Source of the DNA: a bacterium
Lineage (GTDB): Bacteria; Patescibacteriota; Patescibacteriia; 2-12-FULL-60-25
DNA: 37,070 bases
Assembly (NCBI GenBank): GCA_021806685.1
Contig: JAJZQU010000004.1
Location: 1 to 37,070, forward strand
Reading direction: 5' to 3'
Positions 9,653-36,016 of this stretch are shown here, piece after piece. The translations under genes were made by a program, and so were the position numbers. Numbering within the stretch: position 1 is the stretch's first letter; each line of letters opens with the position of its first letter. The notes beneath the pieces are model-generated. The model searched no databases. It was not told the DNA's origin and saw only the letters and a program-made list of their open reading frames with translations.

Positions 9653-11020
9653 ATGAAATACGGCCATAAAATCAACATGAAGATTGAGGGATATGACGAG
9701 AAGGGTCGCGGATTAGGGCAGATTGAGATCTTGCCTAATGAAATACGCCAGGTTGTCACACCCTTTACTGCCCAAGGCGACGAAGTTGAAGCGACTTTTG
9801 TTAAACGCGAGTATGGCCTTAAAATCTGCCAGCTGGACAAGGTCATTCAGCCCGGGCCAGACCGAGTAGCAGCCCCCTGCCCGCATGCCGGAGTTTGCGG
9901 GGGTTGCTTATGGCAACACTTGGATTACCGGGCGCAACTAAAAGAAAAAGAACGGGGCGTGCGAGAATTATTCGCCCAACTAAACTTAGACGATAAAATA
10001 AAACCAATCATTCCGGCTGATGAGACTTTAGGCTATCGCAACCGCATGGATTATTGCGTGGGTTGGAACAGCGAAATCGGGCTCAAAGAATATGGGTCAT
10101 GGAACCGTTATGTCGACATCAAGGAATGCTTGCTCCTTAAACCTGGTGTCAAGGACATTTTGCAGATAGTCCGCGACCTGATGAAACAATTTGATTTGCA
10201 ACCCTGGGACGCCAAGTTTCATAAAGGCGACATTCGCTATGTCGTCATCCGTGACGGCCAGAATACTCAACAAAGGATGATTAACTTGGTCATCCAAGAT
10301 GCTTCACGTATCAATCAAGAAGCTCGCCAATTTTTGTCCGACAAACTCAAACCGTTTTGTACGACTTTATTGCTTGGCCAACTCTCAAAGCCGACTGACC
10401 TGTCACTCGCTGAATCATTTGAGACGCTGCTTGGCAACGAATGGCTTGAGGAAAAAGTAAACGACATAACTTACCAAATCCATCCCAATTCTTTTTTCCA
10501 AACCAACTCAGCCATGGCCGCCCATCTTCAACAAGTCGTCTTAAACGAGTTACAAGATACAAAATACAAGATACAAAGTTTGTTAGACCTATATTGCGGC
10601 CTCGGCTTCTTCGGAATTGCGGCTGCCAAACAACAAAAGAAACTGGAAGTCCATGGCTATGAGTTGGATGAGGAAGCGATTAAACTCGCTGGCCGGAACG
10701 CGGATTTGAATGGCGTAAAAACCCAATGCCACTTCTTTTCCGGCAAAGCTGAGGATTTGAGTTGGAAAGACGTTGATGCCCAAGCCGTCATAGTTGATCC
10801 GCCGCGCTCTGGATTGCACCCGCGTGTCATAAAAACTTTGCTGGATGACAGCGGCCATCTCCACCCATCCACCATCATATACGTCAGTTGCAACTATCAC
10901 CGTTTAAAAGACGAGCTCCCCGCCTTTCTCCAAAAATACGAAATTGCCTCAATCCAACCCTTAGATCTTTTCCCGCAAACTCCTCACATCGAAGTCGTGG
11001 TGACCATGATAAAAAAATAG
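9653..11020 (+). CDS. rlmD: 23S rRNA (uracil-5-)-methyltransferase RumA/RlmD-like (TrmA family)
   Basis: TRAM-like N-terminus, CPHAGVCGGCLWQHLDYRAQLKEK (Fe-S Cys cluster), LLDLYCGLGFFGIAAA, VIVDPPRSGLHPRV, IIYVSCNYHRLKDEL. Confidence 0.92.
   Translation: MKYGHKINMKIEGYDEKGRGLGQIEILPNEIRQVVTPFTAQGDEVEATFVKREYGLKICQLDKVIQPGPDRVAAPCPHAGVCGGCLWQHLDYRAQLKEKERGVRELFAQLNLDDKIKPIIPADETLGYRNRMDYCVGWNSEIGLKEYGSWNRYVDIKECLLLKPGVKDILQIVRDLMKQFDLQPWDAKFHKGDIRYVVIRDGQNTQQRMINLVIQDASRINQEARQFLSDKLKPFCTTLLLGQLSKPTDLSLAESFETLLGNEWLEEKVNDITYQIHPNSFFQTNSAMAAHLQQVVLNELQDTKYKIQSLLDLYCGLGFFGIAAAKQQKKLEVHGYELDEEAIKLAGRNADLNGVKTQCHFFSGKAEDLSWKDVDAQAVIVDPPRSGLHPRVIKTLLDDSGHLHPSTIIYVSCNYHRLKDELPAFLQKYEIASIQPLDLFPQTPHIEVVVTMIKK
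10553..10577. repeat. Heptamer tandem repeat CAAGATA CAAAATA CAAGATA CAAA
   Basis: About 3.5 units inside the RlmD-like gene, encoding DTKYKIQ. Confidence 0.85.
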
Positions 11021-27978: not shown

Positions 27979-28620
27979 TTATTGACAGGCGCCAGGCGCC
28001 CACATGCCGGCCCCGGCAGCTTTAGCTTCGCTTTCAAGTTTTCTTAATTCGACTTTGCGGGCCGGATTTTGCGGGAATGAGACATAGGCCTGCGCATAGC
28101 CATCTTTGATTAGTAAGGCGTTAAAATCAGTCCCGTCTTCCAATAAGACATTGCGCAACAGACGGTCATATTTGTCCCGCTCGTCAGCTTGGGGGTCAGC
28201 CTCAAGCTTGATACGTTTACCATTTAATGCGTGTTTCGTGAAGTCAGAGGCTTGTTTTCCAAAACACTGCACTGGCCGCCGCGGGTCAACCGTCTCCGGT
28301 GTATTAACACCTAGCAACCTGACTTTATATTCCTTGGCTGGTTCCGTATCTAATTTGACGTCGATTGTATCGCCATCAACCACGCGGACTACCGTGGCAT
28401 TCGTTAAAATTTTGGAGGCCTGAGTCGTCGCGGTTACAACTGACGAAGTCGCGCTGGTTGGGACGCTTGAGGACGTTAAGGACCCGCCCGCATCGCCAGC
28501 GAAGCTTGGCGGGCGCGGCGCTTGAGGACGATTGTCTTTTGCCCTCTCAATATCCCAGATGCCAAAAACGCCGACCAAGGCCAGGATAAAAAGCAGAAAG
28601 AGCAATCTTTGCTTGCCCAT
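27979..28620 (-). CDS. Thermonuclease-family nuclease (SNase), membrane-anchored or secreted
   Basis: TVVRVVDGDTIDVKLD...YKVRLLGVNTPETVDPRRPVQCFGKQASDFTKHALNGKRIKLE; N-terminal hydrophobic helix. Confidence 0.92.
   Translation of the reverse strand: MGKQRLLFLLFILALVGVFGIWDIERAKDNRPQAPRPPSFAGDAGGSLTSSSVPTSATSSVVTATTQASKILTNATVVRVVDGDTIDVKLDTEPAKEYKVRLLGVNTPETVDPRRPVQCFGKQASDFTKHALNGKRIKLEADPQADERDKYDRLLRNVLLEDGTDFNALLIKDGYAQAYVSFPQNPARKVELRKLESEAKAAGAGMWAPGACQ
28483..28515. repeat. Intragenic palindromic element CCGCCCGC..GCTTGGCGGGCG
   Basis: CCCGCCCGCATCGCCAGCGAAGCTTGGCGGGCG inside the thermonuclease linker (RPPSFAGDAGG), flanked by G(A/G)CGCTTGAGGACG at 28462-28475 and 28517-28530. Confidence 0.6.
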
Positions 28621-35210: not shown

Positions 35211-36016
35211 TGATGCAGCTGCTGGCCATGCCTTTCATGCAAAGAGCCTTACTGGCAGGGGTTTTGTTGGGCGCGCTCTTGGCTTTGCTCGGCATTTTCG
35301 TTGTCCTGAGGCGTATGGCATTTTTCAGCGACGGCATTGCCCATGCCTCACTGGCCGGCGTGGCTGTGGGAGTTCTGACCAATGCCAATCCCCTGTTAAC
35401 AGCCCTTGGTTTGTCTGCCATCTTGGCAGCTGGCATGGCTTGGCTGGAACGTAGAACCAAAATTGCTTCTGACGCCATCGTGGGCCTGATTTTCACGGCT
35501 GGCATGGCCACTGGAGTCATCCTGCTATCCTTCAAACGCGGTTACCAACCGGAGCTGGTGAGCTTTCTCTTTGGCAACATCCTGGCTATCCAATGGTCAG
35601 AGCTGATCCTGATGGCCGTCCTGGCTGTCATTATCATTATTTTCATTATCCTAAAATACAAACGATTGGCGCTCATGATCCTTAATCCTGAAATCGCCTA
35701 TCTTTCCGGAGTGGCTGTGACTGTTTACCACACGCTTCTGTATGTCACGGTAGCCGTGGCTGCCGTCTTAGGACTAAAAATGCTGGGCATTGTCTTGGTC
35801 AGCGCCCTGCTTATAGTGCCTGTCTCAACAGCTAAACTTTTCGCAGGCTCTTTCCGCAGCCTGATGTTCTGGAGCGTGGTTATCGCCGAACTGGCCGTGC
35901 TGGTTGGCATTGTTATTTCTGTTTACCTAAACCTGCCGACAGGCGCAGTTATTGTCCTGGTTGGCATTGGTTTTTTTGCTTTGACACTAGCCTTCCAAAA
36001 ACTAAAAAGAATCTAG
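35207..36016 (+). CDS. Metal ABC transporter permease (ZnuB family)
   Basis: MQRALLAGVLLGALLALLGIFVVLRRMAFFSDGIAHASLAGVAVG; multi-TM; 4-bp overlap with the ATPase gene. Confidence 0.95.
   Translation: MMMQLLAMPFMQRALLAGVLLGALLALLGIFVVLRRMAFFSDGIAHASLAGVAVGVLTNANPLLTALGLSAILAAGMAWLERRTKIASDAIVGLIFTAGMATGVILLSFKRGYQPELVSFLFGNILAIQWSELILMAVLAVIIIIFIILKYKRLALMILNPEIAYLSGVAVTVYHTLLYVTVAVAAVLGLKMLGIVLVSALLIVPVSTAKLFAGSFRSLMFWSVVIAELAVLVGIVISVYLNLPTGAVIVLVGIGFFALTLAFQKLKRI

What the first reader, a model, noticed from the sequence alone, without database searches (positions are those of the whole stretch)
28462..28530. Palindromic element in the thermonuclease bracketed by 14-bp direct repeats (13/14)
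G(A/G)CGCTTGAGGACG occurs at 28462-28475 and 28517-28530 around CCCGCCCGCATCGCCAGCGAAGCTTGGCGGGCG. Direct repeats around an inverted repeat look like a target-site duplication left by a small non-autonomous mobile element. It lies in the linker between TM anchor and catalytic domain (RPQAPRPPSFAGDAGGSLTSSSVP).
Basis: partly seen in the sequence, partly recalled or inferred. Interest (0 to 1): 0.65.

Follow-up and report, generated by a model that had tools for sequence, protein, structure and literature searches.

The report
Mobile palindrome inside a tandem repeat
A 36-base hairpin-forming DNA element, one copy of an apparently undescribed mobile family scattered through ultra-small Patescibacteria, has landed in frame inside a nuclease gene; the matching sequences on either side are units of an older tandem repeat it landed in, not the scar of its insertion.

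Summary
The repeats are real. The palindrome is a mobile element, but the direct repeats are not its target-site duplication.

The element is 36 bp (minus strand, 28518 to 28483; CCGCGCCCGCC...GCGGGCGGG), a 9-bp stem with one bulged G. It fills exactly 12 codons (PRPPSFAGDAGG). Removing it joins the flanks into a tandem array, CGTCCTCAAG-CGTCCTTAA-CGTCCTCAAG-CGTCC, so the repeats are array units. Such CGTCC arrays occur without the palindrome at other loci of the same genome and genus.

I collected 36 copies (34 with distinct flanks) from Patescibacteria. The exact pattern gave 28 hits in 381 genomes of the class, and 0 for the reversed control. Ends are precise. The preceding dinucleotide is pyrimidine-purine in 32 of 34, against 22% background. 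No duplication longer than 1 bp occurs, except two copies in heptamer arrays. Targets are mostly other repeats: REP-like hairpins, 7-10-bp tandem arrays, and interrupted tRNA gene copies whose intact neighbours show the exact empty site. Nine copies lie in protein genes, all with lengths divisible by three.

Best reading: a non-autonomous REP/RPE-like palindromic element inserting without target duplication; the enzyme is unknown. An IS200-like Y1 transposase does not track its presence.

The parts
28483..28518 (-). 36-bp palindromic element CCGCGCCCGCCAAGCTTCGCTGGCGATGCGGGCGGG, 12 codons (PRPPSFAGDAGG)
   Evidence: Ends defined by 36 copies with unrelated flanks and by exact empty sites in intact tRNA paralogues. 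The 36 bases are identical in L025.
28509..28518 (-). 5' stem arm CC(G)CGCCCGC, with one bulged G
   Evidence: Consensus structure over 21 variants; stem almost invariant
28483..28491 (-). 3' stem arm GCGGGCGGG
   Evidence: Consensus structure
28519..28530 (-).
   Evidence: Joined flanks give a tandem array, period 9-10, shuffle p about 0.005
28461..28482 (-). Array units on the 3' side (TCCTTAACGTCCTCAAGCGTCC), holding the other direct repeat
   Evidence: Same array; (CGTCCTN2-5)n arrays are dispersed in the genus without the palindrome
27979..28620 (-). Host gene: SNase-domain (PF00565) protein, 213 aa, element in its N-terminal linker
   Evidence: Pfam match E 2e-24 at residues 99-208

Best explanation
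The palindrome is one copy of a non-autonomous mobile hairpin element (36-45 bp, conserved ends CCGCGCCCGCC...GCGGGCGGG, variable middle) that is patchily distributed across Patescibacteria. It inserts precisely, without duplicating or deleting target bases, directly 3' of a pyrimidine-purine dinucleotide, most often inside other repeats: tandem 7-10-bp arrays, REP-like hairpins, and loops of spare tRNA gene copies. Here it entered an existing CGTCCTNAAG tandem array in the linker of an SNase gene; because it is 36 bp with no stop in the frame used, it adds 12 residues and leaves the protein readable. Shown: dispersed family, exact ends, absence of duplication, YR preference, empty sites in tRNA paralogues, in-frame position. 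Inferred: movement as a single-stranded hairpin by an enzyme acting in trans (HUH/Y1-like chemistry would give no duplication), and selection removing frame-breaking copies. The 0.8 is for the mobile, duplication-free element sitting in a pre-existing array; the single-strand enzyme step alone I would put at about 0.4.
For: Dispersed: copies in the window's genus and far outside its family; 28 exact-pattern hits in 381 class genomes, 0 reversed-control hits. Some variants are identical in different families: a 36-mer in G121, G002 and G004; a 39-mer in G004, G129 and G359. Exact empty sites without duplication: intact tRNA-Arg next to two interrupted copies (L128), intact tRNA-Lys next to an interrupted copy (L138). 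YR before the element in 32 of 34, p about 4e-19; duplications of 0-1 bp in 32 of 34. Repeats are array units. In-frame: 9 of 9 intragenic copies have lengths divisible by 3, against 17 of 27 elsewhere, Fisher p 0.04. Copies occur in near-complete genomes of few contigs (G001, G226, G407, G714), so they are unlikely to be assembly artefacts.
Against: No clean orthologous empty site exists for the window copy: linkers of SNase orthologues differ in length and sequence, including G004. No mobilising gene was identified; Y1_Tnp is found in about half of carriers and not in G004, which has the most copies in the genus. L025 in another genome shares array plus element over 69 bp at 91%, so array and palindrome may have moved together. 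In two array copies (L030, L054) a 14- or 7-bp duplication cannot be told from array units.
Confidence: 0.8

Rival explanations
1. Transposon-like insertion that left a 12-14 bp target-site duplication.
For: 12/12 repeat on both sides; L030 has a perfect 14-bp and L054 a perfect 7-bp flanking repeat.
Against: In the window the repeats are not both adjacent to the element: on the minus strand the downstream copy starts 7 bases after it, with part of another array unit (TCCTTAA) between. 32 of 34 sites have no duplication above 1 bp; the two exceptions lie in perfect heptamer arrays. The tRNA empty sites show none.
Confidence: 0.06
2. Array and palindrome moved together as one 70-bp compound element, from or to a locus like L025.
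For: 69 bp at 91% identity between the window and L025, including array units on both sides and the shared CCAAGC variant of the core.
Against: All other copies share only the 36-45-bp core, and arrays of the same type exist alone at many loci.
Confidence: 0.2
3. Local origin: hairpin-provoked replication slippage produced the palindrome and repeats in place, with no mobility.
For: Tandem arrays and hairpins are slippage-prone (general knowledge).
Against: The identical 36-mer occurs at an unrelated locus in another genome, and close variants at many, all with exact ends.
Confidence: 0.02
4. REP-type element mobilised by a RAYT (Y1 HUH transposase), a narrower form of the best explanation.
For: Hairpin with a bulge, exact insertion, no duplication, insertion into other palindromes as reported for some REP families (PMC3733652). 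Y1_Tnp found in 8 of 15 carriers defined by the strict pattern.
Against: No GTAG or CGTC tag. Y1_Tnp not found in G004, G002 and the incomplete G000, and similarly frequent in non-carriers.
Confidence: 0.25

Closest known systems
Rickettsia palindromic elements (RPE)
   Same: Small palindromic mobile DNA found in frame inside protein genes as well as outside them (PMC10969869; PMC3733652).
   Different: RPEs as described in that review are about 150 bp with a conserved peptide; this one is 36-45 bp, and is read in several frames and both orientations. Sequences were not compared.
REP elements, GTAG and CGTC super-families
   Same: 20-40 bp hairpins, sometimes within genes (including DNA polymerase I and repair genes) and sometimes inserted in the centre of other palindromes (PMC3733652).
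   Different: No GTAG or CGTC tag; low copy number (1-8 per genome); insertion after YR; hairpins resembling the CGTC-1/dRS3 type are its targets rather than its kin.
GC clusters of yeast mitochondria and hairpin elements of other mitochondrial genomes
   Same: Very short mobile hairpins with conserved stems, variable loops and merging, no coding capacity (PMC4478555, PMC2800124).
   Different: GC clusters are flanked by short AG or ACT repeats resembling duplications; these are bacterial and show none.

Membership tests
RPE-like protein-coding palindromic element | Palindromic repeat inserted in frame in unrelated protein genes | tested here: met
   Nine ORFs with Pfam domains: SNase (window), bPH_2, IMS/Pol IV, GT2, Memo, Wzy_C, DNA Pol I, methyltransferase, GT1
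RPE-like protein-coding palindromic element | Sequence and length of a described RPE family | not tested
   No RPE sequences were compared; length differs from the ~150 bp given in PMC10969869
REP (GTAG or CGTC) | Unpaired GTAG or CGTC tag at one end | tested here: not met
   Position counts show only YR at -2,-1 and no tag on the other side; the element starts and ends with its stem
REP (GTAG or CGTC) | Short hairpin, dispersed in many copies per genome | tested here: inconclusive
   Hairpin yes; only about 1-8 copies per genome
RAYT-mobilised element | Y1 transposase in the genome, its gene flanked by copies | tested here: inconclusive
   Y1 found in about half of carriers, not in G004 and G002; flanking not examined
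MITE of a DDE transposon | Target-site duplication of fixed length | tested here: not met
   0-1 bp in 32 of 34 sites

The most novel reading that the evidence does not exclude
A mobile hairpin that seeks single-stranded loops of structured nucleic acid and inserts after YR with no duplication, using an enzyme not yet known. In three families it sits in tRNA-Arg copies at or next to position 37/38, the usual site of tRNA introns, and in two of them a second palindrome in the D-arm encloses a complete tRNA-Arg gene. This would make it a class of its own, possibly acting on folded DNA or RNA.
Probability: 0.2. Interest if true: 0.75.

Novelty: new variant of a known kind. Interest (0 to 1): 0.52.

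Why it matters
It shows a protein-coding palindromic element family, a phenomenon best known from Rickettsia, in the reduced genomes of Patescibacteria, with precise ends, a clear target rule (YR, no duplication) and a taste for hairpins, tandem arrays and tRNA loops. These give a concrete basis for finding its enzyme. It also warns that repeats flanking a palindrome can belong to the target rather than to the insertion.

Tried and rejected
Target-site duplication: rejected. Hairpin-loop targeting for the window copy: not supported; 84% of background positions score as high as its junction, although across copies there is an excess (KS p 0.005, 11 of 36 below 0.05, partly because several copies share the same target repeat). 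Y1 transposase association: no clear link. Viral contigs: the 48 pattern hits look like chance matches in GC-rich DNA with unrelated middles. Six open frames as a selected trait: 13 of 23 variants against 42% in shuffles, not remarkable. RNA fold of the window stretch alone: z -1.0, not exceptional. Covariation: the outer stem is almost invariant, so no covariation support. Sequence comparison with solved structures placed the Pol I copy between aligned domains but did not align across the site in Pol IV or GT1. Literature searches found no description of this family; the library holds open-licence papers only.

Full report
What is there. The ORF at 27979-28620 (minus strand, 213 aa) has an SNase domain at residues 99-208. 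CGCTTGAGGACG stands at 28464-28475 and 28519-28530. An exact 12-base direct repeat within 100 bp is expected 0.27 times per window of this composition, so the repeat by itself is weak evidence.

The palindrome is a dispersed element. A search for relatives of the protein returned a second place in a related genome, L025, that matched only residues 32-55; its DNA repeats the palindrome exactly and the flanks in part. Searching the 81-bp stretch in relatives gave strong matches in several genomes of the same genus, eight matches at E<=1 in G004 alone. Lining up copies with unrelated flanks fixes the ends as CCGCGCCCGCC...GCGGGCGGG, 36 bp here (28483-28518), 36-45 bp in all, with a rarer CCTGCCCGC start. 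The exact-end pattern gave 28 hits in 381 genomes of the class and none with the reversed pattern, and 6 hits, the window's own among them, in 380 genomes drawn from the phylum. Variants identical over 36 or 39 bases occur in different families. A consensus fold has a 9-bp outer stem with one bulged G and a variable inner part.

The direct repeats belong to the target. Removing the 36 bases joins the flanks as CGTCCTCAAGCGTCCTTAACGTCCTCAAGCGTCC, a tandem array of 9-10-bp units. Arrays of the form (CGTCCTN2-5)n gave 27 hits (some overlapping) in nine genomes of the genus, against one control hit, including four other loci of the window's own genome; none of the array neighbourhoods printed shows the palindrome. 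Other copies of the element sit in the same way inside heptamer arrays: CGTCCYA in L030, CTCGAAG in L054, TAGGTNG in L131, ACTTTTA in L193.

No target duplication, and a YR rule. Among 34 sites with distinct flanks, 23 have no immediate duplication, nine have one base, and the two longer ones (7 and 14) are multiples of the unit of a heptamer array. The dinucleotide just before the element is pyrimidine-purine in 32 of 34 (background 22%, p about 4e-19), and the base after it is A or T in 27 of 34. Two loci with interrupted tRNA copies give exact empty sites: L128, where two tandem partial tRNA-Arg copies carry the element after ...CAATGGA and the neighbouring intact gene reads CAATGGACAGAAC; and L138, where a partial tRNA-Lys copy is interrupted and the intact gene lies about 100 bp away.

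Targets are mostly other repeats. Five copies lie in the loop of GTCATTCYYGCG^AAAGCRRGAATC hairpins, whose empty copies are found in the same genomes. PMC3733652 equates Neisseria dRS3 with the CGTC-1 REPs, and these hairpins resemble dRS3 as I know it; that resemblance was not tested. Others lie in GATCCCGCATCA^AGTGCGGGATGACA-type hairpins. Across all copies hairpin scores at the junction exceed the local background (KS p 0.005), but the window copy does not stand out.

Intragenic copies. Nine copies, the window's included, lie inside ORFs that carry Pfam domains: SNase, bPH_2, Pol IV, two glycosyltransferases, Memo-like, Wzy_C, DNA polymerase I, and a methyltransferase. All nine have lengths divisible by three, against 17 of 27 elsewhere (Fisher p 0.04). 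In Pol I the element falls between the aligned 5'-3' exonuclease and 3'-5' exonuclease-like domains. So survival in genes probably depends on keeping the frame and hitting a tolerant place.

Mechanism. Exact insertion without duplication argues against ordinary DDE transposition with staggered cuts and fits single-strand chemistry as in the IS200/IS605 and RAYT group (general knowledge). Direct support is lacking: Y1_Tnp was not found in G004 or G002 and does not separate carriers from non-carriers. I therefore hold the mobile, duplication-free insertion as well supported and the enzyme as unknown.

Limits. Orthologous SNase genes have different linkers, so the window copy has no clean empty site of its own. 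L025 shares array and element over 69 bp, so joint movement is possible.

Noticed in passing
L132 (G121) and L127 (G184), minus strand around the element: A tRNA-Arg gene is interrupted by the element at about position 37/38 of the anticodon loop and in the D-arm by a second palindrome whose loop holds a complete tRNA-Arg gene. ARAGORN calls the outer tRNA-Arg(cct) in L132 when the inserts are left out. Similar layout in two families.
   Followed up: partly
L128 1481-1782 (G288): Two tandem partial tRNA-Arg copies, each with the element in the D-loop, directly before the intact gene.
   Followed up: yes
L195, L199, L206, L212 (own genome), L197, L198, L205, L211 (genus): (CGTCCTN2-5)n arrays with about one helical turn per unit, in several cases followed by an inverted (GGACG)n array; function unknown.
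   Followed up: partly
window 10551-10577 and 35900-35969: Two further exact 12-13-base direct repeats at short distance.
   Followed up: no
L030, L066: Intragenic copies in DNA polymerase IV and DNA polymerase I, echoing the presence of REPs in replication and repair genes reported in PMC3733652.
   Followed up: partly
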